Shown here: positions 1,858 through 20,568 of the stretch, one piece after another
Layout of the letters: each line of letters begins with the position of its first letter
Numbering within the stretch: position 1 is the stretch's first letter
IMG/VR virus record: IMGVR_UViG_3300010318_003450
Coordinates: 1 to 20,568 of that record
Length of the DNA: 20,568 nucleotides
Source of the DNA: a virus
Direction: 5' to 3' (one strand)
The notes under the pieces: model-generated
What the model saw: the letters and a program-made list of their open reading frames with translations, nothing else
Databases searched by the model: none
What the model was told of the DNA's origin: nothing
Translations under genes and position numbers: made by a program

Positions 1858-3114
1858 ATGTACTGGTTAGTAGAGAATAAAAAACAGTTTGATACTTTTG
1901 TTAATGTTGTTAAAAATGATCTCTATATCGAAATTATTCCCGATTTCTATAATGAACATCCCTGTCAGCAATCTATTGTAGGATATTACGTTAGACCTAT
2001 AACAGATAAAAAAGGATACATTCTACCAGTAAATCATTATGAAACAAGTAATTTACAAGAAAGTGATGTTATAAACTTTCTTAATGGAATATCTAAGTTT
2101 TACTGTTATGATAAAAAGAAGTTATTACATAACTTTAAACATAGAAATCTCTTTGATATACAAATAAATTACAAAGAGATACAAACAGATTATCCATTAA
2201 TTATACAAGATTTTCAAAGAAGAAAAATATCTAACTCAAACTGCCCTATAGTAAAGATATATGAGTACTATGAAGCTAAGTATGAGGAGATTAGTGAGCA
2301 TATTGATAATGATTATAATTTATTTTATAATAATAAAGTACCACTAGTATTTTCAGTTATTGAGTCAAGTGGTATAAAAATAAATAAACAATTATTTGAA
2401 AAACATTTTTATGAAAATGAAGAAGATTTTGTTTTTACTCAGTATAACTATACTACTTTAACTACAAGACCATCTAATACATTTAAGAAAGTAAACTATG
2501 CTGCTTTAAATAAAGATAATGGTAGTAGGGATTGCTTTATACCGAGAAATGATCATTTTGTAGAAATAGATGTTTCCTCTTATCATATACTTTTACTTTG
2601 TCAGTTACTTAATTATGAGTTTGAGGTAGAAGATATACATGAATATTTTGCATCTGTATATCAAACATCATATGATAAAGCAAAGCAATTAACATTTCAA
2701 CAAATATATGGAGGAATAAAATCCGAATACGAACATATTCCATTCTTCCAGAAAGTAAAAAACTATTCTAATAATTTATGGTCAGAATTTAATTCGAAAG
2801 GCTATATAGAATGTCCTATATCTAATTATAGATTTTCAATGAAAGATCATCCGCAAATGAATTCATTAAAATTAATGAATTATCTATTGCAAAATTTGGA
2901 AACTTCAAATAATGTTCTTATCTTATATGATATCTTGAAACTATTGCGAGGTAAACAAACTAAGGTTGTTTTATATACTTACGATAGTATATTATTAGAT
3001 GTAGATAAAAAAGAAGAAGAAATAGTAGAGAAAATTAAAGAAGTTTTTCGTATATTTAATCTTAAAATAAAATGTAAAAATGGTAAAAATTATGGTAATC
3101 TTGTAAAATGTTAA
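1858..3114 (+). CDS. Compact family A (PolA-like) DNA polymerase
   Basis: A 418-residue protein whose C-terminal half carries the family A polymerase landmarks. LTTRPSN near residues 201-207 matches the TGRLSS region. Motif A is FVEIDVSSYHILLL with Asp238. Motif B is KAKQLTFQQIYGG (274-286), with the conserved Lys, Phe and Tyr-Gly. A conserved Gln lies near 345, and motif C is LYTYDSILLDV with Asp376, where Ser377 replaces the Glu of the usual HDE. The N-terminal third sits where a 3'-5' exonuclease domain would be, but I cannot find the acidic DxE signature, so proofreading is probably absent. At 418 residues it is much smaller than E. coli Pol I (928) or T7 polymerase (704). The 5' nuclease function is a separate gene at 5559. 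Since the window also encodes a family B polymerase, this enzyme may serve repair, lagging-strand gap filling or a specialised role. Confidence 0.8.
   Translation: MYWLVENKKQFDTFVNVVKNDLYIEIIPDFYNEHPCQQSIVGYYVRPITDKKGYILPVNHYETSNLQESDVINFLNGISKFYCYDKKKLLHNFKHRNLFDIQINYKEIQTDYPLIIQDFQRRKISNSNCPIVKIYEYYEAKYEEISEHIDNDYNLFYNNKVPLVFSVIESSGIKINKQLFEKHFYENEEDFVFTQYNYTTLTTRPSNTFKKVNYAALNKDNGSRDCFIPRNDHFVEIDVSSYHILLLCQLLNYEFEVEDIHEYFASVYQTSYDKAKQLTFQQIYGGIKSEYEHIPFFQKVKNYSNNLWSEFNSKGYIECPISNYRFSMKDHPQMNSLKLMNYLLQNLETSNNVLILYDILKLLRGKQTKVVLYTYDSILLDVDKKEEEIVEKIKEVFRIFNLKIKCKNGKNYGNLVKC
3044..3058 (+). promoter_or_regulatory. Candidate promoter, copy 2, inside the end of the polA-like gene
   Basis: TTTTTCGTATATTTA, identical over 15 bases to the copies before 1858 and 11704. 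It lies in the last 25 codons of the polA-like gene. If TATATT (3051-3056) is a -10 element, transcription would start near 3062, giving a leader of about 57 bases for the gene at 3119. In this copy the motif also encodes Phe-Arg-Ile-Phe, so coding constraint cannot be excluded. Confidence 0.4.
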
Positions 3115-4479: not shown

Positions 4480-5553
4480 ATGGCAAAAAGTAAAAAGTCT
4501 TTGTCCGAGGCCGTGTCTTCGGAAATCAAGTCGAAATTTGATTTAGGTAAGTTTAAAGAAAAGAAAGGATTAGCAGGAAATGTAAAGTTCAAAGAACAAC
4601 AATGGATTCCTCTATCTGATGCTTACCAAGATATACTATCAGTACCAGGAATTCCAATGGGACATATCGTTCTACTAAGAGGTCATTCTGATACTGGTAA
4701 AACAACAGCGCTACTAGAAGCAGCTGTATCAGCTCAAAAGCGAGGCATCCTTCCAGTTATTATCGTAACGGAAATGAAATGGAACTGGGAGCATGCAATG
4801 CAAATGGGGTTAGAAGTAGATACTGAAGTAGATGAAGAAACTGGTGAAGTAGTTGGTTACTCTGGAAACTTTATCTATGTTGATAGAGAAACTCTAAATA
4901 CTATTGAAGATGTTGCTGCATTCATTATGGATATTATTGATGAGCAGTCTAATGGTAACTTACCATATGATCTTCTTTTCTTATGGGATTCTATTGGAAG
5001 TATTCCTTGCGACCTTTCAGTACGTTCTAATAAGAATAATAACGAATGGAACGCAGGAGCAATGTCTACTCAATTTGCAAATAATGTAAATCAGAAGATT
5101 GTTCTATCTCGTAAAGAGTCATCTAAGTTTACTAATACTTTAGTTTGTATTAATAAGGTATGGGCTATGAAGCCGGAATCTCCTATGGGTCAACCTAAGT
5201 TAATGAATAAAGGAGGTTACTCAATGTGGTATGATGCTACATTCGTAGTTACTTTCGGCAATATTATGTCTGCTGGTACCTCTAAGATTAAAGCAATTAA
5301 GGATGGTAAGCAGGTAGAATTTGCTAAGCGAGTAAACGTTCAGGTAGAGAAGAATCATATTAATGGAGTAACTACAAGAGGAAGAATTATTATGACCCCT
5401 CATGGATTTATCAAAGATACTCCTACAGCTCTAAATAACTATAAAAAAGATAGAGCCCAAGAATGGTCTGATATCATGGGAGGTTCTACTTTTAATATTG
5501 TAGAAGAAGAGCATGATTTAACTGATATCTCAACTTACACTCAAGAACCCTGA
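4480..5553 (+). CDS. uvsX: UvsX/RecA-like recombinase
   Basis: A 357-residue RecA-fold ATPase, slightly shorter than T4 UvsX (391). Walker A is GHSDTGKTT (68-76) and Walker B is LLFLWDSIGS with Asp170. The segment NEWNAGAMSTQFANNVNQK after it and the VCINKVW strand fit the UvsX subfamily better than bacterial RecA. The protein would form filaments on gp32-coated ssDNA and drive strand invasion for recombination-dependent replication and repair. The start ATG lies 16 bases after the gene 32 stop. Codons 7-18 use TTG, TCC, GAG, GCC, GTG and TCG, which are uncommon in this genome, giving a short G+C-rich patch at the 5' end, while the rest has the usual A/T-ending codons. Confidence 0.9.
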   Translation: MAKSKKSLSEAVSSEIKSKFDLGKFKEKKGLAGNVKFKEQQWIPLSDAYQDILSVPGIPMGHIVLLRGHSDTGKTTALLEAAVSAQKRGILPVIIVTEMKWNWEHAMQMGLEVDTEVDEETGEVVGYSGNFIYVDRETLNTIEDVAAFIMDIIDEQSNGNLPYDLLFLWDSIGSIPCDLSVRSNKNNNEWNAGAMSTQFANNVNQKIVLSRKESSKFTNTLVCINKVWAMKPESPMGQPKLMNKGGYSMWYDATFVVTFGNIMSAGTSKIKAIKDGKQVEFAKRVNVQVEKNHINGVTTRGRIIMTPHGFIKDTPTALNNYKKDRAQEWSDIMGGSTFNIVEEEHDLTDISTYTQEP

Positions 5554-6590: not shown

Positions 6591-7969
6591 CCCTATCAAG
6601 CTTAAACGCGTACGGAAAGGCTTTTCAGATAAAAGTAATTTCATCATTATTAACACATAAAAAATTTTTAGTAAATATCTTTGACGTTCTAATCGAAGAT
6701 TATTTTGATAGCGATGCTAGTAAGTGGGTAATTAAACAAATTGTCTCTTACTATGAAAAATACCATACTACACCAACTATGGATGTACTAAAGGTAGAAC
6801 TAAATAAGCTAGAAAATGATGTATTAAAATTAGCAGTAAAAGAATTACTAAGAGAAGCATACAAAGCATCAGATGAAGACTTAGAATTCGTTCAAGAAGA
6901 GTTTTCTAAGTTCTGTCAGAATCAACAACTTAAAGCTGCTCTGTTAGAATCAGTTGACTTACTTAAAACAGGAGATTATGAATCTATTCAATTCCGGATT
7001 AAGAAAGCAATGGAAGCAGGTGGTGATAAGAACGTTGGTCACGAATATAATATTGATGTAGAATCTCGGTATAGAGAAGATAACAGAACAGTAGTACCAA
7101 CTCCATGGCCTGTATTTAATGATTTACTACAGGGTGGATTAGGTAATGGAGACTTTGGATTAATCTTTGGTAATCCTGGAGGAGGTAAATCTTGGCTATT
7201 AGTAGCTTTAGGAGCTTATGCTGTAAAAGCAGGATATAATGTTTTACATTATACTTTAGAATTAGGAGAAGGATATGTAGGAAAAAGATATGATGCTACT
7301 CTAACTGGTATAAATGTATCTGAAATTAGCTCTAAAGAAAATGTAGCTAGAGTAACCGAAGAAGTAAACCAATTACCAGGAAAATTAATCATAAAAGAAT
7401 ACTCTCCAGGTATTGCAACTATAGATACTATTAGAGCTCATATTGAGAAAGTTAAGAATCTAGGCACCGACCCTGACTTAATAATTATCGACTACGCCGA
7501 CTTAATGGGGAGCAGAAAAAAAAGCAAAGAACGAAAAGATAGTATTGATGATATTTATCTTAACACCAAGGGACTTGCAAGGGAATTAAATTTACCAATA
7601 TGGTCTGTTTCACAAGTTAACCGAGCTGGTGCGAAGGATGACATAATTGAAGGAGACAAGGCCGCGGGTTCATATGATAAAATCATGATCACGGATTTTG
7701 CTCTTTCTCTGTCACGCAAAAGAGAAGACAAAGTAAATGGAACGGGTCGATTTCATTTGATTAAAAATCGATATGGAATGGATGGAATGACCTATGGGGT
7801 GAAAGCGGACACCAATGTGGGTAGATTTGAGGTATTTGATTATGATGAAGATCAATATCTAACACCACAAACCCAACCGTCAAGTAATGGAGACATGAAC
7901 AGTTTTGATAGAAAGATATTAGCTAACGAATTTTTTAAACTAAACAACAATGGGAATATTCCAGCCTAG
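6587..7969 (+). CDS. 41: gp41/DnaB-type replicative helicase
   Basis: A 460-residue protein, close to T4 gp41 (475). An N-terminal helical domain (about 1-145) is followed by a RecA-like motor with Walker A GNPGGGKS (195-202), a Glu in HYTLELGEG, Walker B LIIIDYADLM (Asp302), the sensor/DNA-loop motif SVSQVNRAG (341-348) and RFHLIKNRYG near 394. It would unwind DNA as a hexamer moving 5'-3' on the lagging strand and work with the phage primase. It starts inside the preceding stop (ATGA) and its end overlaps nrdB by 20 bases. From about 7440 to 7840, covering Walker B to the arginine-finger region, G+C is higher than in the preceding part (about 50% at 7621-7680) and codon choice changes. Confidence 0.93.
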   Translation: MTLSSLNAYGKAFQIKVISSLLTHKKFLVNIFDVLIEDYFDSDASKWVIKQIVSYYEKYHTTPTMDVLKVELNKLENDVLKLAVKELLREAYKASDEDLEFVQEEFSKFCQNQQLKAALLESVDLLKTGDYESIQFRIKKAMEAGGDKNVGHEYNIDVESRYREDNRTVVPTPWPVFNDLLQGGLGNGDFGLIFGNPGGGKSWLLVALGAYAVKAGYNVLHYTLELGEGYVGKRYDATLTGINVSEISSKENVARVTEEVNQLPGKLIIKEYSPGIATIDTIRAHIEKVKNLGTDPDLIIIDYADLMGSRKKSKERKDSIDDIYLNTKGLARELNLPIWSVSQVNRAGAKDDIIEGDKAAGSYDKIMITDFALSLSRKREDKVNGTGRFHLIKNRYGMDGMTYGVKADTNVGRFEVFDYDEDQYLTPQTQPSSNGDMNSFDRKILANEFFKLNNNGNIPA

Positions 7970-8927
7970 ACCATTTTATAAACCATTTGAATACGGAGAC
8001 ATAACAAACCCTTTAATTGATGCAATGTGGGCATCACATTGGACAGTTAATGAATTTAATTTTACTAAAGATATACAAGACTTTAATACTAATTTAACTG
8101 AAAAAGAAAGACAGGTAGTAAAGCGTGCATTACTAATGATCTCTCAAGTAGAAGTATCAGTAAAAAGTTATTGGTCTAATGTCGGAAAACTTATACCTAA
8201 ACCAGAAATCTCAGAAATGGGATCAGTATTTGGTGGAGTAGAAGTTATACACTCAAGAGCTTATTCTGAAATTTTAACTAAGCTAGGATTAAATGATGAG
8301 TTTAGTACTTTGCTGGATACTGAAATTGTAAAGAATAGAGTTAAGTATTTAACAAAATATAATGAAAAAAATTATGTAGATGATAGAAAAAATATCTACT
8401 ATTCGTTAGCATTATTTTCTTTATTTACTGAAAACGTATCTTTATTTTCTCAGTTTTATACTATTTTAGGATTTAACAGATATTATAATGTATTAAAAGA
8501 TACTGCTAATGTAGTACAGTATACTTCAAAAGAAGAGAATTTACATGCTGCTGGTGGTATTGCTATACTTAATAAAATCAGAGAAGAATATCCAGAAGTA
8601 GTTGATTATACTATGGAGCTTAAAATATATGAAGAAGCTAAAGAAGCATATGATGCTGAATTAAGACTTATTGAATGGATATTAGATGGGTATGAAAATG
8701 ATTTCTTATCTTATGATATATTAAAAACATATTTAGGAATAAGAATGAACGACTCATTGGAAAAGATAGGATTTGAAAAATTGTTTGATGTAGATGAGAA
8801 TCTAGCAGAAAAAACGTTATGGATGGAAGAGGAAATATATGTTCCTGCCTTAACAGATTTCTTTCATAAGAAACCTATTGATTATCAAAAAGCAATGAAA
8901 AGCTTTGACGCAGGTGAATTATTTTAA
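7950..8927 (+). CDS. nrdB: Class I ribonucleotide reductase, beta (radical) subunit
   Basis: A 325-residue ferritin-like helical protein. By alignment by eye to E. coli NrdB the metal ligands are Glu68 (Asp84 in E. coli), Glu98, His101, Glu161, Glu196 and His199, seen in QVEV, VEVIHSRAY, LFTENVSLF and KEENLH. The radical tyrosine is Tyr105, four residues after His101 as in E. coli Tyr122. The subunit makes the stable radical used by NrdA to reduce ribonucleotides to deoxyribonucleotides for phage DNA synthesis. The combination of a first-ligand Glu with a retained Tyr is notable: in the Chlamydia-type Mn/Fe enzyme both the Asp-to-Glu and Tyr-to-Phe changes occur. The start overlaps the helicase end by 20 bases, and nrdA follows after 17 bases. 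Confidence 0.92.
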   Translation: MGIFQPRPFYKPFEYGDITNPLIDAMWASHWTVNEFNFTKDIQDFNTNLTEKERQVVKRALLMISQVEVSVKSYWSNVGKLIPKPEISEMGSVFGGVEVIHSRAYSEILTKLGLNDEFSTLLDTEIVKNRVKYLTKYNEKNYVDDRKNIYYSLALFSLFTENVSLFSQFYTILGFNRYYNVLKDTANVVQYTSKEENLHAAGGIAILNKIREEYPEVVDYTMELKIYEEAKEAYDAELRLIEWILDGYENDFLSYDILKTYLGIRMNDSLEKIGFEKLFDVDENLAEKTLWMEEEIYVPALTDFFHKKPIDYQKAMKSFDAGELF

Positions 8928-12341: not shown

Positions 12342-13160
12342 ATGAGTAAAAATGTTGTAATTTCACTTAGCGGAGGTATGGACTCCTCTACTTTATTAAT
12401 CCATGCTTTAAAAGAAGGATTTAACGTAACTGCTGTATCTTTTGATTATGGTCAAAAGCATCGAGTAGAACTTGAAAGAGCTCAATCTTTGGTTACTTAC
12501 TTATGTCAAAATGATATTGGGATTGCCAATACGTTAAAATATAGAGTAATTAAATTAGATGGTTTACCTGACCTATTAAACTCAGCTTTAGTAGCAGGAG
12601 GAGAAGATGTTCCTGAAGGTCACTATGCAGAAGAAAATATGAAAGCTACAGTGGTACCTAATCGTAATAAAATCTTTTCTTCTATAATTCAGGCTATTGC
12701 TCTTTCAATGTATAAAGCAAATAACCTACCAACTTATATTGGAATGGGTATTCATGCAGGAGATCACGCTATTTATCCTGATTGTAGAGAAGAATTTAGA
12801 GATGCAGATCTAGCTACCTTTAAATTAGGAAACTGGGACGCTGATGATATTGAATATTATACTCCATTTATAAATGATGATAAGTATGGTATTTTACAAG
12901 CAGGTGAAGTAGCTTGTTTTGAATTAGGATTAGATTTCAATGAAGTATATTCTCGAACTAATACTTCTTATAAGCCTATCCAAATCGATCGTGAATGGTA
13001 CTCTGATTATAAATCAGCTTCATCAGTAGAACGTATCGAAGCATTTATTAAATTAGATAGACCAGATCCAGTAAAATATGCTGACGAAACAGGTGTTGTT
13101 CACTGGCAAAAAGCTAAAGCTCATGTAGAAGAGATTTTATTAAATTATTCAAATAAATAA
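12342..13160 (+). CDS. queC: QueC-like 7-cyano-7-deazaguanine (preQ0) synthase, zinc cysteines lost
   Basis: A 272-residue PP-loop ATPase that would convert 7-carboxy-7-deazaguanine and ammonia to preQ0. Recognised by SLSGGMDSS (8-16, PP-loop), VSFDYGQKH (32-40), VPNRNKIF (105-112), the motif GIHAGDHAIYPDCREEF (136-152) and the end ERIEAF (230-235). QueC normally binds zinc with four cysteines, in a TCY-like motif and a CGKCGSC-like motif just before ERIEAF. Here the equivalent residues are Ser209 (TSY), Asp222, Ser225 and Ser228, with spacing unchanged, so the structural zinc site is gone while the catalytic parts are intact. It starts the 7-deazaguanine gene group, four bases after the small unknown gene, and is followed at once by the thioredoxin-like gene. 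Activity towards preQ0 is inferred from the presence of queF downstream. Confidence 0.88.
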   Translation: MSKNVVISLSGGMDSSTLLIHALKEGFNVTAVSFDYGQKHRVELERAQSLVTYLCQNDIGIANTLKYRVIKLDGLPDLLNSALVAGGEDVPEGHYAEENMKATVVPNRNKIFSSIIQAIALSMYKANNLPTYIGMGIHAGDHAIYPDCREEFRDADLATFKLGNWDADDIEYYTPFINDDKYGILQAGEVACFELGLDFNEVYSRTNTSYKPIQIDREWYSDYKSASSVERIEAFIKLDRPDPVKYADETGVVHWQKAKAHVEEILLNYSNK

Positions 13161-13161
13161 A

Positions 13162-13407
13162 ATGATTAAAGTAAAGTATTTTTATTCTAGTAGTTGTATG
13201 GTTTGTAGAAAACTACAAAATGATATTAATCTATTGTCTAAAAAATATAATGTAGAAAAACTTGATGATAAATTTAATTCCAAGGAATTAGATAAGCATA
13301 ATATAGAGTATTTTCCTACTATGATTGTTTATAAGGATGATCAAATAATTCATAATGTGAATGGTCTTAAACCAATATATAGAATTATTAAAGAACTTTT
13401 AAAGTGA
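13162..13407 (+). CDS. Thioredoxin/glutaredoxin-like protein
   Basis: An 81-residue thioredoxin-fold protein. A first beta strand leads into SSSCMVCRKL with a CxxC redox pair at residues 12 and 15, and a conserved cis-Pro region EYFPTMIVYKD lies at about 50-60. It is of phage glutaredoxin/thioredoxin size. The likely role is to reduce the C-terminal disulphide of the phage ribonucleotide reductase, although here it sits between queC and the small membrane gene, not next to nrdA. It could also keep the cluster cysteines or the QueD and QueF thiols reduced; context alone cannot decide. Its TGA overlaps the GTG of the next small gene. Confidence 0.82.
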   Translation: MIKVKYFYSSSCMVCRKLQNDINLLSKKYNVEKLDDKFNSKELDKHNIEYFPTMIVYKDDQIIHNVNGLKPIYRIIKELLK

Positions 13408-13547
13408 AAGAAATAGTATATCATTCTTTAGGTTTATGTGGAGAATCTCATCCTTCTATATTATCAATATTAGCATTAGGATTAATTCCTGTTATTTTTA
13501 TGTATAAAAAAGTTATAAATTATGTCAAAAAAATTTTTATCCACTAA
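13404..13547 (+). CDS. Small single-span membrane protein (GTG start)
   Basis: A 47-codon frame starts with GTG at 13404, overlapping the TGA of the thioredoxin-like gene (GTGA), and ends with TAA at 13545-13547, 26 bases inside queD. The predicted peptide has an N-terminal polar part with YHSLGLCGESHPS (6-18), one hydrophobic segment ILSILALGLIPVIFMY (19-34), and a basic tail ending KKIFIH, so an N-out/C-in single-span protein is expected. It fills the only gap of more than 100 bases in this part of the genome. The coupled start, the clear membrane segment followed by positive charges and the gap filling make it likely to be real, although no function is known. Confidence 0.62.
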   Translation: MKEIVYHSLGLCGESHPSILSILALGLIPVIFMYKKVINYVKKIFIH

Positions 13548-13992
13548 GATATATGATGGATATTCAACATGTTTTCGACAATGGAGAGCAACAGATACTC
13601 ATTGTCAATATCTACATGGATACTCAATATCTCTTAAAGTAACTTATGAAGGAGATCTAGATGAAAAAAATTGGGTTGTAGATTTTGGTAGAGCCAAAAG
13701 ATCAGGAGTATTAATTGATGGAATGAACCTTAAAGATTGGTTAGCATATATGTTAGATCATACAGTTATAATTGCAGAAGATGATCCATTCCTAGATGCT
13801 TTTAAGCAAATGGGTAAAGTAGGAGCTGCACAAGTGAGAGTACTACCTGCAGTTGGAGCAGAAAAATTTGCTGAGTATTTTTATAATAAATTAAATGAAT
13901 GGGTAAAAGAAGATACAAATGGCAGATGCCGAGTAGTATCTGTAGAAGTAAGAGAACACGAAAAAAATAGTGCAATATATTATGGAGAATAA
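13522..13992 (+). CDS. queD: QueD-like 6-carboxy-5,6,7,8-tetrahydropterin synthase
   Basis: A 156-residue T-fold enzyme, second step of preQ0 synthesis (dihydroneopterin triphosphate to carboxytetrahydropterin). CQYLHG (28-33) contains the catalytic Cys28 and His32 (E. coli QueD Cys27 and His31); LDHTV holds His80 and VGAEKFAEYF holds Glu114, matching the substrate and proton-relay positions. Two zinc ligands differ from E. coli: the first His (FxAAH) is Cys17 in YSTCFRQW, and HGH is HGY (Tyr34). The CFRQW...HGY pattern looks like a recurring QueD subfamily rather than random decay, but I cannot check that here. Start ATG at 13522 overlaps the small membrane gene. The end overlaps dpdA by 11 bases. 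Confidence 0.88.
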   Translation: MSKKFLSTKIYDGYSTCFRQWRATDTHCQYLHGYSISLKVTYEGDLDEKNWVVDFGRAKRSGVLIDGMNLKDWLAYMLDHTVIIAEDDPFLDAFKQMGKVGAAQVRVLPAVGAEKFAEYFYNKLNEWVKEDTNGRCRVVSVEVREHEKNSAIYYGE

Positions 13993-14800
13993 AATTAGAA
14001 TAGCTCACGAAGCACCGATGTCAATATTTGACAAGGTTCAAAAGCTAACAGATTACGATTACTGTTTAGTACATTTAATGGATGAACTTCCGGAATATAA
14101 AGAATTATTCTTTAAAGCTAAAGAGCAAGGAAGAGAGATTATTTTAGATAATAGTATTTTTGAATTAGGTAAATCATTTAATAATAAAAAATATTACCAC
14201 TGGGTTACAGAACTAGAACCAACTTGGTATATTATTCCAGATGTATTAGAAGATTGTGATAAAACAATTGATAAAGCAAAAAGATGGTTATCTAAGTATC
14301 CTGATATTAAGAGTAAATCAATAGGAGTAGTTCAAGGAAAAACATACGAAGAAATAGTTAAATGCTACAAATATATGGTAGAGGTAGCTAAAGTAGATAA
14401 AGTAGCTATTTCATTTGATTACTCTTATTATTTGAATACTTATGAAAATTTAGGAGAAAATAAATATGAAAGATTTACTATCGGTAGAGCATGTCTTATT
14501 GATCAAATGATCGAAGATGAGGTAATTGATTATAGTGTACCGGTACATCTACTAGGTTGTGGCTTACCACAAGAAGGAGCATTTTATAAAGAAGATCCAG
14601 AAAGATATTTCTTTATTGATTCTGTTGATACCTCTAATCCTATTGTTCATGGTATTAAAAACGTTCAATATACTAAATATGGATTAAAAGATAAAGAATC
14701 ACAAAAATTATTTACTATGATTAATTATCAATTAAATCCACAAATTTGGGACTTAATTGAATATAATACTAAGGCATTTAAAAATTTATGGAATGCATAA
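13982..14800 (+). CDS. dpdA: DpdA-type DNA guanine transglycosylase
   Basis: A 272-residue TGT-fold protein that would swap guanine in DNA for a 7-deazaguanine base after replication. Motifs in TIM-barrel order: LDNSIFELG (Asp56, like the DSGGFQ loop of tRNA-guanine transglycosylase), IIPDVLEDC (Asp87), SIGVVQGK (Gln118-Gly119 area, like GIVQGG), HLLGCGLP (189-196) and FFIDSVDTSNPI (Asp213/Asp216, place of the nucleophile Asp280 of Zymomonas TGT). The zinc-binding CxCxxC...H module of tRNA enzymes is missing and the protein ends soon after the nucleophile, as expected for DNA-acting DpdA rather than tRNA-acting Tgt. I chose ATG 13982; a GTG four codons upstream (13970) is possible. The stop overlaps the formyltransferase start by eight bases. 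The exact DpdA subfamily cannot be assigned by eye. Confidence 0.85.
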   Translation: MENKIRIAHEAPMSIFDKVQKLTDYDYCLVHLMDELPEYKELFFKAKEQGREIILDNSIFELGKSFNNKKYYHWVTELEPTWYIIPDVLEDCDKTIDKAKRWLSKYPDIKSKSIGVVQGKTYEEIVKCYKYMVEVAKVDKVAISFDYSYYLNTYENLGENKYERFTIGRACLIDQMIEDEVIDYSVPVHLLGCGLPQEGAFYKEDPERYFFIDSVDTSNPIVHGIKNVQYTKYGLKDKESQKLFTMINYQLNPQIWDLIEYNTKAFKNLWNA

Positions 14801-15344
14801 ACGATGGATTGCAATGTTCTCGCAAACAGGTAGCGAGTTAATAGAAATAATTAATGCTCTAGATACAGAGCCTGATATTATTATTACTAATAAGAGACCA
14901 GAGCATCTAAGAAAAATAAATAAAGATTTACTGGATAGATGTGGAAGTAAAATTTGTTATGTATCTAATAAACCAACACTAGAAGAGTATTATGGAATAT
15001 TTGAACGATTTGTTTTTAATCCTATAGTTACTCTCCACGGCTGGTTAAGAGTATTACCACCAGAAATATGTAAGAGTTATGAAATTTATAATGGTCATCC
15101 AGGAGATATAATTAAGTATCCGAAACTAAAAGGTAAAGATCCTCAATTAAAAGCATGGAAGAAAAATTATAAATTCATAGGAACAGTTTTACATAAGGTG
15201 ACAGAAGAAGTAGATGAAGGAGAAATTATAGCTTATATAAATAAAATTCCTACTAGAAATTTGGAACTTGATGATTATTTTCGTATATTAAGAAACGAGT
15301 CGATAGACTTATGGATAGAATTTTTGAATAAAAGGTTATACTAA
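14793..15344 (+). CDS. dpdN: Formyltransferase, candidate dPreQ1 formyltransferase DpdN
   Basis: A 183-residue protein of the GART/methionyl-tRNA formyltransferase fold. The catalytic triad of E. coli PurN (Asn106, His108, Asp144) is matched by Asn100 and His102 in NGHPG and Asp141 in VTEEVDEGEII, and LHGWLRVLP (81-89) matches the LAGYMRIL strand. It lacks the C-terminal tRNA-binding domain of Fmt and differs from PurN in substrate-side segments. Phage 7-deazaguanine studies predict a formyltransferase (DpdN) that turns dPreQ1 into 7-(formylamino)methyl-deazaguanine; this gene, joined to dpdA by an eight-base overlap and with queF nearby, fits that assignment. The formyl donor would be host 10-formyl-tetrahydrofolate. 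ATG 14793 is preferred over a TTG at 14757. The stop shares one base with the next start (TAATG). Confidence 0.78.
   Translation: MHKRWIAMFSQTGSELIEIINALDTEPDIIITNKRPEHLRKINKDLLDRCGSKICYVSNKPTLEEYYGIFERFVFNPIVTLHGWLRVLPPEICKSYEIYNGHPGDIIKYPKLKGKDPQLKAWKKNYKFIGTVLHKVTEEVDEGEIIAYINKIPTRNLELDDYFRILRNESIDLWIEFLNKRLY
15277..15291 (+). promoter_or_regulatory. Candidate promoter, copy 4, inside the end of dpdN
   Basis: ATTTTCGTATATTAA shares the 14-base core TTTTCGTATATTWA with the other three copies. It lies within the last 23 codons of dpdN. TATATT at 15284-15289 would start a transcript near 15295, about 49 bases before the kinase-like gene at 15344, very like the spacing of copy 2 before 3119. 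It would separately drive kinase-queF-queE. The motif also encodes Phe-Arg-Ile here. Confidence 0.4.
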
Positions 15345-15898
15345 TGAAAATAGCATTTACAGGAGCTCAGGGAACGGGTAAATCTACTTTAGTTAATTAT
15401 CTTGTAGATAATAATGTTAAAGAGATAGAAGGATATACTTTTGTAAAAGAAGTAACAAGAAGAATACAAAGACAATTTAATCTGGATATTAATGAGAAAG
15501 GTGATCTAACTACTCAAATACTAATTATTACAGATCATATTGTAAATCTGCGTAAACCAAAAGTAGTAATGGATAGATGTATTTTAGATGCATTAGTCTA
15601 TACTCGATGGTTATGTGATTATAATCCTGGTATTCCTAGCTGGGTTTATGATTATTGTGAAAATGTATTTAAAAGTTACATTAATCAATATGATATTATA
15701 TTTTATTTAAAGCCTGAATTTGATCTGGTTAGTGATGGAGTAAGAAGTGATGATATAGATTTTAGAGATGATATAGCAGAATTATTTGAAACCTACATTA
15801 ATAATTTTGGTGTAGAAGTTGTGGAATTAACAGGTACGGTAAAACAAAGAGTTAAACAAATTAAAAAAGCAATTAATGAGCACACAAAGTCAAATTAA
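15344..15898 (+). CDS. P-loop kinase-like ATPase (NadR/AAA_28-like)
   Basis: A 184-residue single-domain P-loop protein. Walker A is GAQGTGKST (7-15), a VVMDRCILDAL strand (74-84) provides a DRxxxD motif like that of nucleotide and nucleoside kinases, and IIFYLKPEFD followed by an Arg-containing lid (GVRSDDIDFRDD) resembles the LID of NadR-type and deoxynucleoside/deoxynucleotide kinases. It most likely phosphorylates a small nucleoside or nucleotide-like substrate. It lies inside the run of overlapping dpdN-kinase-queF-queE genes (TAATG with dpdN, a 23-base overlap with queF), which suggests a link to modified-base metabolism. Substrate is unknown: a dNMP kinase supporting replication, a salvage kinase or a dedicated cluster enzyme are all possible. 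Confidence 0.78.
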   Translation: MKIAFTGAQGTGKSTLVNYLVDNNVKEIEGYTFVKEVTRRIQRQFNLDINEKGDLTTQILIITDHIVNLRKPKVVMDRCILDALVYTRWLCDYNPGIPSWVYDYCENVFKSYINQYDIIFYLKPEFDLVSDGVRSDDIDFRDDIAELFETYINNFGVEVVELTGTVKQRVKQIKKAINEHTKSN

Positions 15899-16793
15899 TG
15901 ATATAGCGGGAACGCTATTAGGTAAAAGAGGTGGAGAAGGCTATTCAACAACTTATGATTCTTCTCTATTAGTTCGTATTCCTAGATCTTTGAATCGGGA
16001 AACTTATCGAATTGATAATGAAAATCTTCCGTTTATAGGCGGAGATGTCTGGAATGCATACGAAGTATCAGCTATTACTAATACCGGAAGACCAGTATCA
16101 GGGGTAATGAAGATATGGTGTAAAGCAGATTCTAAATATCACGTTGAATCTAAGTCAATTAAATTGTATCTTAACTCCTTTAATATGACACCTTTTGGTG
16201 AAACAGGAGAAGAATGTATTAAGATTATCGAAGATACTGTAAGAGAAGATTTATCTACATTATTAGAAACAGAAGTTGAATGTAGATTATTTACAAGAAA
16301 TGATAGTCTTATCTTTGATGTTTTTAGTGATTATGATGAACTAGAAGATTTAGTAGATTTAGATAAAGTAGATTACTCTAATGATAAATTACAAAAATTA
16401 GATCTTAGTAACTCTACAGTAAAAGATTTTACTCCTAGATTAAAAGTTCGTACTAATCTTCTAAGAAGCAATTGTCGAGTAACCAATCAACCAGATTGGG
16501 GAGATTTATTTATCTTTATTAAAGGTAATGAAGAAGATAGTGTATTTACATTAGATAGTCTAGCAAGCTATATTGTATCTCATAGACAAGTAAATCACTT
16601 TCATGAAGAGATTGTAGAAATGATCTTTAAGAAATTGTATGATGAATTTAATCCTAAGGAATTAATGGTATGTGCAATGTATACTCGAAGAGGTGGTATT
16701 GATATTAATCCTATTCGATCTACTCATGAGCATTTAATTCCTGGAGCATTTAGAACTATGGATAGCTTAACTCAAAAAACATTACGTCAATAA
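15876..16793 (+). CDS. queF: QueF, NADPH-dependent preQ0 reductase (bimodular type)
   Basis: A 305-residue nitrile oxidoreductase of the long, E. coli-like type (E. coli 282). The QueF motif ESKSIKLYLNSFNMT lies in the N-terminal T-fold half (91-105), and the catalytic half has SNCRVTNQPDWGD with Cys200 (thioimide nucleophile) and Asp207, spaced as E. coli Cys190 and Asp197, then HFHEE (His243, Glu244; E. coli His229, Glu230) and YTRRGGIDINPIRS near the end. It reduces preQ0 to preQ1 with NADPH. In a phage that also encodes dpdA, this implies that the incorporated base is preQ1 or a derivative rather than preQ0 or archaeosine. An acidic insert (about 144-172, DYDELEDLVDLDKVDY) is longer than usual. 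The stop shares a base with the queE start. Confidence 0.93.
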   Translation: MSTQSQINDIAGTLLGKRGGEGYSTTYDSSLLVRIPRSLNRETYRIDNENLPFIGGDVWNAYEVSAITNTGRPVSGVMKIWCKADSKYHVESKSIKLYLNSFNMTPFGETGEECIKIIEDTVREDLSTLLETEVECRLFTRNDSLIFDVFSDYDELEDLVDLDKVDYSNDKLQKLDLSNSTVKDFTPRLKVRTNLLRSNCRVTNQPDWGDLFIFIKGNEEDSVFTLDSLASYIVSHRQVNHFHEEIVEMIFKKLYDEFNPKELMVCAMYTRRGGIDINPIRSTHEHLIPGAFRTMDSLTQKTLRQ

Positions 16794-17569
16794 TGAAGTG
16801 TAAAAGATTAAGAAGTTACGAAAAGCCTTTACAGGTACTTGAGCTTTATACTGCAGTTCAATCTGAAGGTTCAAGACAAGGATATCCTACTATTGTAGTT
16901 AGAACATCAGGATGTACTCATAGATGCTTCTTTGGTGAAGGAGGATGGTGTGATAGCTGGTATACTTCCATCCATCCAGAAAAAGGTACTTTCTGTTTTA
17001 ATGACATTATTAAAATGTATGATGATAATCCTCATATTAAAGAGATGATGTTAACAGGAGGTTCTCCTACTATGCATCCTGCTTTAGTAAATGAATTAAC
17101 TCATTTTGCTCATGAACGAGGAATCTTTATTACTATTGAAACTGAAGGATCTCACTTCTTAGAAACTGATTATCCTATTGACCTATTATCTATTTCACCT
17201 AAGTTTAGTAATTCTATTCCTGTAGTAGGAGCTAAGACCCCACTTGGAGAGATAGTAGATGAAAAAATGATCATTAAACATAATAGTAAACGATTAAATA
17301 AAGAAGCAATTAAAGCCTCTATTGAATATCATAAAGATTACCATCTAAAACCTGTATTAGATAAAGAGCTTAGTATTCTTCCAGAAGTAGAAGAGTTTGT
17401 TAAAGAGTTAGAGATACCAGATGAAAAGATTTGGTGTATGCCTGCTGGAGATGATATTCCTGCTCTACAAGAATCCTATCCTGTAGTAATGAACTTTGTT
17501 AGAGATAGAGGATGGAGGTTTACTGGTAGATCGCACATCATGGCCTTCGGGACTGAGCGTTGTGTTTAA
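16793..17569 (+). CDS. queE: QueE, 7-carboxy-7-deazaguanine synthase (radical SAM), variant cluster motif
   Basis: A 258-residue radical-SAM enzyme converting carboxytetrahydropterin to 7-carboxy-7-deazaguanine. VLELYTAVQSEGSRQGYPTIVVRTSGC is typical of the QueE N-terminus (only parts quoted: SEGSRQGYPT, 24-33). The [4Fe-4S] motif is Cys41-x3-Cys45-x7-Cys53, a five-residue expansion (FGEGG) of the usual CX3CX2C, followed by the usual WCDS/WYT sequence. The SAM-binding motif TGGEP reads TGGSP (88-92). The rest, with TIETEGS and DLLSISPK, is standard. Start ATG 16793 shares one base with the queF stop. The last 13 codons (17531-17569) are clearly G+C-richer than the rest of the gene, and a recoded copy of the final TERCV-stop follows the gene. 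Confidence 0.9.
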   Translation: MKCKRLRSYEKPLQVLELYTAVQSEGSRQGYPTIVVRTSGCTHRCFFGEGGWCDSWYTSIHPEKGTFCFNDIIKMYDDNPHIKEMMLTGGSPTMHPALVNELTHFAHERGIFITIETEGSHFLETDYPIDLLSISPKFSNSIPVVGAKTPLGEIVDEKMIIKHNSKRLNKEAIKASIEYHKDYHLKPVLDKELSILPEVEEFVKELEIPDEKIWCMPAGDDIPALQESYPVVMNFVRDRGWRFTGRSHIMAFGTERCV

Positions 17570-17588
17570 TACAGAAAGATGTGTATAA
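17552..17588 (+). repeat. Duplicated, synonymously recoded 3' end of queE
   Basis: The last codons of queE, 17552-17569, read ACT GAG CGT TGT GTT TAA (TERCV-stop). One base after the stop, 17571-17588 reads ACA GAA AGA TGT GTA TAA, which encodes the same five residues and stop with different codons (13 of 18 bases identical). The second copy is in another frame and uses the A-ending codons and AGA that are normal for this genome, while the copy now in frame sits in a G+C-rich patch. This looks like the remnant of the native gene end after a diverged 3' segment was recombined in. Confidence 0.65.
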
Positions 17589-17610
17589 AAAGTTTGATAA
17601 ATAAAAATAA

Positions 17611-17625
17611 TTTCTTATATTAAGT
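17611..17625 (+). promoter_or_regulatory. Variant candidate promoter before folE
   Basis: TTTCTTATATTAAGT, a relaxed form of the TTTTCGTATATTWA element, in the 58-base gap before folE. TATATT (17616-17621) ends seven bases before the A of the folE ATG at 17628, the same close arrangement as copy 1 before the polA-like gene, so a leaderless or nearly leaderless transcript would result. The rest of the gap is A/T-rich and has no hairpin that I can see. Confidence 0.4.
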
Positions 17626-17627
17626 AA

Positions 17628-18311
17628 ATGGAAGGACGAAAAAAACAATACGATATAGAATGCGTGCAAGAAGGTCACGCTAATGGTGTAGCTCCTGGCT
17701 TTCCTTTATCGGATAAGCAAAAGGAGAAAATGATAGAAAAAGCAGCTAAGGCTTATGGTAAGTTTCTAGATGAATTAGGATGTGATTGGCGCAATGATCC
17801 TAACTCTAGTGATACCCCAAGGCGTGTAGCTAAAGCATATGTAAATGATTTATGGGCAGGTAGGTACACGCTCCCGACCGAAATTACTTCCTTTCCTTCC
17901 GACGGTTATGATGGAATAATTCAAGAGAGCAATATCCCGGTTACGTCAATGTGTTCACACCACCATCAAACCATAAAAGGTCTGGTGAGCGTGGCCTACG
18001 TGCCTTCTAAAGATGGAAGAGTGATAGGATTGTCTAAACTAAATCGAATAGTAGAACATTTTGCTAGACGAGGAGCAATCCAAGAACAATTAACCGTTGC
18101 TATTCATCAAGCTATCGATAAGGTATGTGAAGGTAATGTAGGAGTAGCGGTAATGATAAATGCAACCCATAATTGTGTAAGTTGTAGAGGAGTAAAGCAT
18201 CAAGGTGCAGCAATGCAAACAGCTAAGCTATCGGGATGTTTCCTAGAAGAAGATAGTGCTAGAGCGGAGTTTTATAACAATATTCAGCTCTCAGAAAAAT
18301 GCAACCATTAA
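17628..18311 (+). CDS. folE: GTP cyclohydrolase I (FolE)
   Basis: A 227-residue FolE, about the length of E. coli FolE (222). Zinc ligands are Cys109 and His112 in MCSHHHQT (the family CEHH) and Cys183 in ATHNCVSCRGV; the Glu of CEHH is Ser110 here. VIGLSKLNRIVEHFARR (132-148) and IQEQLT (151-156) are the classic core, and the end has GCFLEEDSARAEFYNNI. It opens GTP to dihydroneopterin triphosphate, the substrate of QueD, and so feeds the preQ0 pathway (it could also feed folate). Having a private FolE frees the pathway from the host pterin supply. The middle of the gene (about 17821-18000) reaches roughly 40-50% G+C and uses unusual codons such as CTC, CCG, ACG and GTG, unlike neighbouring genes. 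Confidence 0.94.
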   Translation: MEGRKKQYDIECVQEGHANGVAPGFPLSDKQKEKMIEKAAKAYGKFLDELGCDWRNDPNSSDTPRRVAKAYVNDLWAGRYTLPTEITSFPSDGYDGIIQESNIPVTSMCSHHHQTIKGLVSVAYVPSKDGRVIGLSKLNRIVEHFARRGAIQEQLTVAIHQAIDKVCEGNVGVAVMINATHNCVSCRGVKHQGAAMQTAKLSGCFLEEDSARAEFYNNIQLSEKCNH

Positions 18312-18330: not shown

Positions 18331-18831
18331 ATGCAGTATCAATATAGTAGAAGAGATGATTATGTACCGTTTGTATCCGAGGTAGAAGAGTTTAATGAAG
18401 CCTTTAATAAGCCTAACAAGTATACCCCTAATGTTCCCGAGAAAGAGCAGTGGGAATTTGTGTATAACTTTATATTAGAGGAGTTAAATGAGTATAAAGA
18501 AGCATGCGAGAAAGGCGACATCGTAGAAGTATTAGATGCATTAGCAGACATCACATATGTTGCAACAGGTAATGGTGTAATGTTGCACGGACTCAAAGAT
18601 TATTTTGAAGCTGCGTATGAGGAAGTACATCAATCAAATATGTCAAAGCTTTGTAAGTCACATACAGAGGCTTTAGATACGGTTGAACTACGTCAAAAAG
18701 AACAAGGTGAAGCTTGTCACATAGAGAAGAAGGATGAGTATTGGGTGGTGCTAAGATCGAGAGATCGAAAAGTAATGAAATCGATTAATTACTTTCGACC
18801 AAACTTAAAGGCAATATTGGATGGCCAATAG
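18331..18831 (+). CDS. MazG-like nucleotide pyrophosphohydrolase
   Basis: A 166-residue all-alpha protein with the MazG/PRA-PH metal signature: FILEELNEYKEAC (Glu50, Glu51, Glu54) and EVLDALADITYVATG (Asp69, Asp73), which together form the EExxE...D...D magnesium site. Such enzymes hydrolyse (d)NTPs to the monophosphate and PPi; phage versions may clean the pool of non-canonical nucleotides or act on alarmone-related signals. The C-terminal part (about 105-166), with KKDEYWVVLRSRDRK, is an extension of the kind seen in phage MazG-like proteins. Codon use is slightly more G+C-rich than in the clusters upstream. It starts 19 bases after folE and its end overlaps the DNA polymerase start by 11 bases. 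Confidence 0.82.
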   Translation: MQYQYSRRDDYVPFVSEVEEFNEAFNKPNKYTPNVPEKEQWEFVYNFILEELNEYKEACEKGDIVEVLDALADITYVATGNGVMLHGLKDYFEAAYEEVHQSNMSKLCKSHTEALDTVELRQKEQGEACHIEKKDEYWVVLRSRDRKVMKSINYFRPNLKAILDGQ

Positions 18832-20545
18832 TAGTGATCAATTAGTATTACCTTATAAAAAGTGTTATGCCGAAAAAATAAGAGGTAATAATTATTTAAT
18901 TCATCTTTGGGATGATGGTGGAAAGCAAGAACTTGAGTGGCGTAATTATGCTTACAAAGAATCTGATTATGGTGAGTATGAAGGTTTCCGAGGTGAGAAG
19001 TTAGAGAAGGTTTACAAATGGGATTATGATGATAAGACTATTCATTATCATGATATGCAACCGGCTCAAAAGTTCTTAATTGAAACCTACGGTACTAATG
19101 ATGAGCCTTCGACTTCACATAAAGAATTATTTTTCGATATTGAGATTGAGATTGGTGGACGATTAACTCAAGAATATATCCGTCAAGCTCCGATGCCTTG
19201 TACCTCTATAGCTTGGTATGATAAGTTTAGAGATAAGTGGGGTATCTTGATTTTAGATAAGCAAGGTAAAATGCAATACTCTGAAAAGGGTAACAAAGAG
19301 ATCATACCTGTTCGTACAGAAAAAGAGTTACTTGCTAAATGGGTTGAACGTATTAGAGAAATCGATCCAGATATCTTAATCGGATACAATAGTGATCATT
19401 TCGATATTCCTTATCTATATTTTCGTATCTGTAATGTATTAGGAGAGGAATGGGCTATGGCTATGTCTCCTATCAATATTGCAAGAGATATATCTCAATG
19501 GTCTAGAGAACGTACTATTGAGTTTGCTGGTCTAGAATGTTTGGATTATTTACGACTACATAAGCAATTCTCTATGCGAGAAGAACCAACCTATAAGTTA
19601 GATGCTATTGGTGAGAAGTATGCCGGACTCGGTAAAGTAGAGTATGAAGGTTCTCTTAATCGATTATTCGAAGATGATATTGATAAGTTTATCGAATATA
19701 ACTTTCGAGATGTTGAGATCTTAAAAGTATTAGATGAGAAGTTAGGTTATCTTGATTTAACTAAAAACTTATGTCATAAAGGTAAGATTAATTACAATCA
19801 AGTTCATTCTACTTCAGTGGTTCACGATGGAGCTATTTCTGCTTATCTTTTATCAAAAGGTATTATTCCTCCACGTAAAGAACGTAATAATAAATTAGAT
19901 CGTAAGATTGCTGGTGGTTATGTATTCTGTCCTACTTCCGGACTATACAATTATATCTTTGATTTAGATTTAACTTCTCTATATCCATCTATTATGATGA
20001 CTCTTAATATGGGTAAGGAAACTATGATAGGAAAGGTATATCATGGTGATGAAAAGAATAACCGATTAGGATTAAAAGATTTAAAAGAGTTGCCTCAAGA
20101 ATTAAATGTTAGAGTACAAAACCATAGAGGTCAAACTAAGATGATGGAAGTATCTAAACTCGTTAAGTTTATCGAAGATATGGATATCGCAGTAGCTGCT
20201 AATGGAGTAATGTTCTCTAAAGATAAACCATCAGTATTCTCAATACTATTAAATGAATGGTTTAATGAGAGAGTACGATATAAGAACTTAATGAAAAAGT
20301 ATAAGTCTGAAGGTAACAAAGCTATGACTGCAAAGTATCATACAATGCAGTATACCATTAAAATCTTACTTAATTCTTTATTCGGAGCCACCGCAATGCA
20401 AGGCTTTAGATATGGTAATATACTTATAGGAGAAGCTATTACTTTATCTGGACAGCGTATCATTCAAGAATCAGCTCTGCACATTAATCATACTTGTCAC
20501 GATTTACTTTCTGGTAATATAGATAAAGAAGTTTTTACTAATTAA
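18821..20545 (+). CDS. 43: Family B DNA polymerase, N-terminal part (exonuclease plus palm motifs A and B; motif C missing)
   Basis: A 574-residue fragment of a T4 gp43-like polymerase (T4 898). Proofreading exonuclease motifs are all present: ExoI FFDIEIE (Asp106, Glu108), ExoII GYNSDHFDIPY (Asn190, Asp195) and ExoIII YNFRD (Tyr293, Asp297). Polymerase motif A is DLDLTSLYPS (Asp383) and motif B is KILLNSLFG (Lys514-Gly522, Phe in place of the usual Tyr). The reading frame then ends with TAA at 20543-20545, right where alignment to RB69/T4 places YGDTDS, so the second catalytic Asp pair and the thumb are absent. The last 23 bases of the window are A/T-rich and do not contain YGDTDS in any frame. 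Either a second gene encodes the C-terminal part (split polymerase) or an intron interrupts the gene just beyond the window. Confidence 0.92.
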   Translation: MANSSDQLVLPYKKCYAEKIRGNNYLIHLWDDGGKQELEWRNYAYKESDYGEYEGFRGEKLEKVYKWDYDDKTIHYHDMQPAQKFLIETYGTNDEPSTSHKELFFDIEIEIGGRLTQEYIRQAPMPCTSIAWYDKFRDKWGILILDKQGKMQYSEKGNKEIIPVRTEKELLAKWVERIREIDPDILIGYNSDHFDIPYLYFRICNVLGEEWAMAMSPINIARDISQWSRERTIEFAGLECLDYLRLHKQFSMREEPTYKLDAIGEKYAGLGKVEYEGSLNRLFEDDIDKFIEYNFRDVEILKVLDEKLGYLDLTKNLCHKGKINYNQVHSTSVVHDGAISAYLLSKGIIPPRKERNNKLDRKIAGGYVFCPTSGLYNYIFDLDLTSLYPSIMMTLNMGKETMIGKVYHGDEKNNRLGLKDLKELPQELNVRVQNHRGQTKMMEVSKLVKFIEDMDIAVAANGVMFSKDKPSVFSILLNEWFNERVRYKNLMKKYKSEGNKAMTAKYHTMQYTIKILLNSLFGATAMQGFRYGNILIGEAITLSGQRIIQESALHINHTCHDLLSGNIDKEVFTN

Positions 20546-20568
20546 TCTATATTTATAATAATAAAAAA

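What the first reader, a model, noticed from the sequence alone, without database searches (positions are those of the whole stretch)
20400..20568. Family B polymerase stops just before the YGDTDS catalytic motif
ExoI-III and palm motifs A and B are intact, then a TAA occurs where motif C should begin. A functional enzyme needs the missing part, so either a second gene completes a two-subunit polymerase, as in some T4-related phages and phage RM378, or a group I intron or similar element interrupts the gene. Motif C is a favoured target of mobile introns and inteins.
Basis: partly seen in the sequence, partly recalled or inferred. Interest (0 to 1): 0.6.

Follow-up and report, generated by a model that had tools for sequence, protein, structure and literature searches.

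The report
Phage DNA polymerase in two genes
This uncultured phage makes its DNA-copying enzyme from two separate genes cut just before the catalytic core, and in its lineage the second gene sits thousands of bases away beside the sliding-clamp gene, so the apparently truncated enzyme is half of a two-part machine.

Summary
Observation confirmed: the PolB ORF (18821-20545, 574 aa) has intact ExoI-III and palm motifs A and B and stops 21-22 residues before motif C; the contig ends 23 nt later. It is neither an error nor an intron. Near-identical contigs (95-97% aa) have the same stop, then an unrelated 926-aa gene. In a large, mostly marine phage family (126 distinct loci with both halves on one contig) PolB is split at this site: the C-half ORF follows at 0 to 4.2 kb, with overlapping start/stop, a small ORF 'S' or cargo genes between. 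In the window's lineage the C-half (309 aa, YTDTDS) was found on an overlapping contig chain (22 kb at 99.96%, 6 kb at 99.88%): it stays with clamp, Hsp20, GroEL and clamp loader, at least 9 kb from the N-half. Both halves are under strong purifying selection, and their models match complementary parts of RB69 gp43. So: a two-subunit replicase from unlinked genes (assembly inferred). Split gp43 and archaeal PolB are known, but the Aeromonas cut is elsewhere (before motif B). By-catch: in six related polB loci, one in this split family, motif C itself is interrupted by a hairpin plus stop between equivalent codons, resembling T4 gene 60 ribosomal bypass.

The parts
18821..20545 (+). PolB N-half: exonuclease domain, fingers and palm motifs A and B; 574 aa, ends in TAA 20543-20545
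   Evidence: AF2 model pTM 0.85 matching RB69 gp43; dN/dS 0.075-0.087
19130..19153 (+). ExoI motif FFDIEIEI (D106, E108)
   Evidence: invariant columns in alignment of 30 relatives
19373..19417 (+). ExoII motif ILIGYNSDHFDIPYL
19688..19723 (+). ExoIII motif FIEYNFRDVEIL
19961..19993 (+). Palm motif A DLDLTSLYPSI (catalytic D383)
   Evidence: the stretch leading into it (358-384) has pLDDT below 50 in the isolated N-half model
20360..20389 (+). Motif B KILLNSLFGA
20543..20568 (+). Stop codon TAA and the 23 nt to the contig end; in L002 the same sequence runs on into an unrelated 926-aa gene whose ATG starts 36 nt after the stop
18331..18831 (+). MazG-like pyrophosphohydrolase, upstream neighbour of the N-half, as also in relative L005 where the C-half follows the N-half; supports the ancestral order MazG-N-C-clamp

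Best explanation
The ORF is the large subunit (exonuclease, fingers, half the palm) of a two-subunit T4-type family B DNA polymerase. The split lies in a loop of the palm, after motif B and before the beta-hairpin carrying motif C. The small subunit (motif C, KxY-like RRYAQW, thumb) is a separate gene. In most of the family the two genes are neighbours; in the window's lineage they were separated and the C-half stayed with the clamp, chaperonin and clamp-loader genes. Shown: both genes exist, are complementary without overlap or loss, are conserved and under purifying selection, and are not adjacent here. Inferred: the two polypeptides assemble without splicing, completing the palm sheet (motif A strand from the N-half beside motif C strands from the C-half) to form one active site, and work as the phage replicase with the clamp.
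For: 97% identical contigs L002/L004 and 95% identical L003 have the same stop, then an unrelated gene. Relatives at 53-58% encode the rest as a separate ORF downstream with YxDTDS: 126 distinct split loci, 39 adjacent (ATGA or TAATG overlaps), 81 with small ORF S between, gaps to 4.2 kb, and one fused chain, L016, that joins exactly at the split point. Window-lineage C-half found on G011 with clamp-Hsp20-GroES-GroEL-clamp loader in the same order as in L009; G011 overlaps G007 (5,952 bp, 99.88%), which overlaps G001 (22,008 bp, 99.96%), which holds the N-half; the ~145 kb chain has one N-half and one C-half. dN/dS 0.075-0.087 (N) and 0.054 (C). N and C tree distances correlate, r = 0.94, 0 of 2000 permutations. 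PHROG 262 is covered 19-568 by N and 561-842 by C. Both models match RB69 gp43; low pLDDT falls mainly in palm strands that would pair across the split (N 358-384, C 88-116). Precedent: gp43A/B of phage 25 co-purify and are active (PMC2988022).
Against: No protein or RNA data. The N/C link in the window's lineage rests on overlapping contigs from related samples, not one read or contig, and the piece between G001's right end and the C-half is not held. The window's own contig (91-93% identical in DNA to G001) has not itself been linked to a C-half. The lineage's position is unresolved and differs between N and C trees. Ingroup-only N/C correlation is weaker (r = 0.78). A conserved family-A polymerase-like ORF coexists, so PolB need not be the only replicase.
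Confidence: 0.9

Rival explanations
1. An intron (group I or II) or HEG-bearing element interrupts a single polymerase gene that RNA splicing restores.
For: Motif C is a known target; relatives have homing endonuclease genes between the parts (GIY-YIG, HNH, Vsr-like).
Against: No continuing exon within 7.5 kb; the next gene is unrelated; no Rfam intron match; relatives range from ATGA overlap to kilobases with unrelated cargo, which no intron explains; C-halves start with a conserved Met at the split.
Confidence: 0.02
2. The halves are rejoined as protein by a trans-splicing split intein, as in Nanoarchaeum equitans PolB.
For: Non-adjacent halves; N. equitans PolB and phage MIJ3 PolB use split inteins (PMC4104785, PMC6892783).
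Against: N-half ends and C-half starts close to the junction in the fused homologue, with no intein-like tail or head; total length 883 against 852 aa in L016.
Confidence: 0.03
3. The N-half is now only an exonuclease or decaying remnant and the family-A polymerase-like protein (window 1858-3114) replicates the genome.
For: A 418-aa family-A-like ORF is conserved in 9 of 10 family contigs.
Against: Fingers and palm motifs A and B are conserved in the N-half, and a full C-half with YTDTDS exists under purifying selection; the family-A-like ORF also occurs in relatives with adjacent PolB halves.
Confidence: 0.05

Closest known systems
gp43A/gp43B of Aeromonas phages 44RR and 25 (split T4-type PolB)
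   Same: T4-type PolB in two genes; phage 25 halves co-purify and are active (PMC2988022).
   Different: 44RR 43A (498 aa) ends in the fingers, before motif B (about window residue 496-514); here the cut is after motif B, before motif C. 44RR genes are adjacent (about 50 nt apart); here they are at least 9 kb apart.
Methanothermobacter split PolB (Kelman et al. 1999; discussed in PMC4104785)
   Same: Two-polypeptide family B polymerase; from memory, the cut is also before motif C.
   Different: Archaeal PolB3, thought to derive from faulty intein excision; not compared by sequence here.
Nanoarchaeum equitans PolB
   Same: Two non-adjacent gene parts (PMC4104785).
   Different: Parts carry a split intein and could be trans-spliced; none is present here.
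RB69/T4 gp43
   Same: Same fold and motifs for both halves.
   Different: Single chain.

Membership tests
T4-type family B DNA polymerase (gp43) | ExoI-III, motifs A, B, C and gp43 fold | tested here: met
   N-half and C-half together
Split (two-gene) family B polymerase | Two ORFs that together cover the enzyme without loss or overlap | tested here: met
   PHROG 262 19-568 plus 561-842; junction equals the fused L016 chain
Split (two-gene) family B polymerase | The two polypeptides form an active heterodimer | not testable with these tools
   Inferred from selection, correlated N and C distances and the gp43A/B precedent
Aeromonas gp43A/gp43B type | Break between motif A and motif B | tested here: not met
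   Break is after motif B
Intron-interrupted polymerase gene | Intron RNA structure and a downstream exon in cis | tested here: not met
Split-intein polymerase (N. equitans, MIJ3) | Intein N and C parts at the break | tested here: not met
   No intein-like tail or head at either end
[quoted passage not shown]
   Sequence features in L036, L039, L341, L343/L356, L345; the codons are synonymous Thr codons, identical only in L039; L035 is a longer variant without a stop directly after take-off
T4 gene 60-type ribosomal bypass (related loci only, not the window) | Ribosome actually bypasses the gap | not testable with these tools
   Needs reporter assay or mass spectrometry

The most novel reading that the evidence does not exclude
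The motif C codons of phage PolB are a recurrent fracture site for homing elements, and phages survive it in different ways: the window's family by a permanent two-subunit polymerase whose genes can even become unlinked, others by a programmed ribosomal hop that stitches Y-x-D-T^D-S together across an in-frame stop (one case inside the window's own split family).
Probability: 0.5. Interest if true: 0.82.

Novelty: new variant of a known kind. Interest (0 to 1): 0.58.

Why it matters
A whole phage family appears to replicate with a polymerase whose catalytic aspartates come from two polypeptides, with genes that are sometimes unlinked: a natural split replicase for studying assembly and engineering. 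It warns that 'truncated' PolB in metagenomes can be intact. The related interrupted motif C sites could supply several new natural cases of ribosomal hopping, of which phage T4 gene 60 is the main proven phage example.

Tried and rejected
Sequencing error (same stop in independent contigs). Group I or other intron (no Rfam match, no cis exon). Split intein in the window's lineage (no extra domain at either end). C-half in the window, in the 72-kb contig G001 or in G007: absent by tblastn and HMM. Extending G001 to the right found only the same contigs. DNA-level search of named phages: no match. Trees could not place the window's lineage firmly. The hop-pattern scan of bacterial genomes gave 17 chance hits, none in PolB.

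Full report
OBSERVATION. The last ORF of the window (18821-20545, 574 aa) is a T4-type family B polymerase with ExoI-III, motif A and motif B, ending in TAA at 20543-20545; the contig ends 23 nt later. Pfam DNA_pol_B breaks off at position 202 of 453 and PHROG 262 at 568 of 856. The window has no motif C-bearing partner.

WHAT FOLLOWS THE STOP. Contigs L002 and L004 (97% aa identity) and L003 (95%) hold the same gene and run on. The stop is conserved and the last 60 nt of the window are identical in L002. The next gene is an unrelated 926-aa ORF, then a lysozyme-like protein and others (names by eye). No intron family matches. So neither an error nor an intron.

THE FAMILY. Relatives at 53-58% identity have an N-half ending at the same place and, downstream, a separate ORF starting MKHLEDTPWWIC..YVDTDS. 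Searching with the C-half gave many more. Of 127 distinct loci with both halves on one contig, 39 have stop and start overlapping or touching (ATGA, TAATG), 81 have a small ORF 'S' (about 87 aa, no Pfam or PHROG match) between the halves, gaps reach 4.2 kb, and one (L016) is a single 852-aa chain joined exactly at the split. Between the halves sit cargo genes that look (by eye, not searched in a library) like nucleotidyltransferase, KDO-8-P synthase, transaldolase, cysteine synthase and sugar enzymes, and in a few cases GIY-YIG or HNH endonucleases. More distant relatives (33-37%), including Microcystis phage Mel-JY01, mostly have one continuous gene.

THE MISSING HALF IN THE WINDOW'S LINEAGE. 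It is absent from the 72-kb contig G001. Walking outwards by overlap led to G011, with a 309-aa C-half (YTDTDS) followed by clamp, Hsp20, GroES, GroEL and clamp loader, as in L009. G001 and G007 share 22,008 bp at 99.96%, G007 and G011 share 5,952 bp at 99.88%; the ~145 kb chain holds one N-half and one C-half. They are about 133 kb apart along the chain, or at least 9 kb the other way if the genome closes. A second contig, L241, has a 97% identical C-half fragment. MazG precedes the N-half both here and in L005, where the C-half follows downstream, so the simplest history is separation of a once neighbouring pair.

FUNCTION. dN/dS is 0.075-0.087 for the N-half and 0.054 for the C-half. N and C tree distances correlate (r 0.935; 0 of 2000 permutations; ingroup r 0.78). 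The split maps on RB69 gp43 to the loop just before the motif C hairpin. AlphaFold models of the halves (pTM 0.85 and 0.60) both match RB69 gp43 best. Their low-confidence stretches are mainly the motif A strand region (N 358-384) and palm strands of the C-half (88-116), as expected if each lacks its sheet partner. Assembly and activity are inferred; gp43A and gp43B of phage 25 co-purify and are active (PMC2988022).

COMPARISON. In Aeromonas phage 44RR the 43A product ends in the fingers before motif B, so this is a different split. Archaeal split PolB genes (Methanobacteriales; non-adjacent and possibly intein-spliced in N. equitans) are the other precedent (PMC4104785). I found no description of this phage family's split in the papers searched, which is not proof of absence.

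BY-CATCH: INTERRUPTED MOTIF C. In outgroup loci L035, L036, L039, L341 and L345 the polymerase's motif C itself is interrupted. In the four whose N part is held (not L345) the N part carries a ~40-aa Hint-like tail, and L036, L039 and L341 have a homing endonuclease gene next door; the C part starts with a short Lys-rich head that reads into Y-x-D-T and then hits a stop. Beyond the stop the D-S-V/L-F sequence resumes in another frame (L035: same frame after 39 nt): GAT-ACG-TG-ACA-GAT (L036), GAC-ACG-TA-ACT-GAT (L341, also L344), GAT-ACG-TA-ACC-GAT (L345), GAC-ACC-TGAAG-ACC-GAC (L039), GAT-39 nt-GAT (L035). A further case, L343/L356 (contig G021), is in the window's own split family, in an otherwise normal N-S-C arrangement: GAC-ACG-TG-ACA-GAC. 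In all six a strong hairpin ends at the Asp codon just 5' of the take-off: folding energy of the 45 nt upstream is -15.1 to -23.8 kcal/mol against a mean of -4.85 and a minimum of -11.4 at 171 intact sites. The exact DNA pattern hits only 6 stretches in all viral contigs, 5 of them polB motif C, against 17 chance hits in 257 Gb of bacterial genomes. These features resemble T4 gene 60 bypass (matched codons, stop after take-off, 5' stem-loop, neighbouring homing endonuclease; PMC5009743). In huge phage LR756508 an intein-like insert sits at the same YTD^TDS point. Function is untested.

Noticed in passing
L036 (=L347) 7683-7790; L341 (=L342, L344) 4936-5015; L345 (minus strand, about 8150-8290); L039 7630-7760; L035 6802-6930: polB motif C interrupted by a stop with a strong hairpin directly upstream and equivalent take-off and landing codons (ACG-TR-ACN; ACC-TGAAG-ACC; GAT-39nt-GAT) that would restore YxDTDS exactly: looks like T4 gene 60-type programmed ribosomal bypassing, with homing endonuclease genes next door in L036, L039 and L341.
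   Followed up: partly
L356 3500-3620 (contig G021; also L343 2900-3015): The same hairpin plus ACG-TG-ACA element inside the C-half gene of a phage of the window's own split-polymerase family, in a normal N-S-C-clamp arrangement.
   Followed up: partly
L365 (LR756508.1 258000-268500): Huge phage PolB with an intein-like insert at motif B and, on a separate downstream ORF 3 kb away, an intein-like insert exactly at YTD^TDS of motif C.
   Followed up: partly
window 1858-3114: 418-aa family A polymerase-like ORF (weak Pfam DNA_pol_A and PHROG 17 hits; palm-like motifs, YTYDS in place of HDE), conserved at 42-50% in split-PolB phages: a second polymerase of unknown role.
   Followed up: partly
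L009 6752-7015 and homologues in more than 80 loci: Small ORF 'S' (about 87 aa) between the polymerase halves, sometimes elsewhere in the genome; no Pfam or PHROG match.
   Followed up: partly
window 12342-18311: Genes that look like QueC, QueD, a Tgt-like protein, QueE and FolE, near ribonucleotide reductase genes, suggesting 7-deazaguanine modification of the phage DNA (from reading the sequences; only the radical SAM domain was tested).
   Followed up: no
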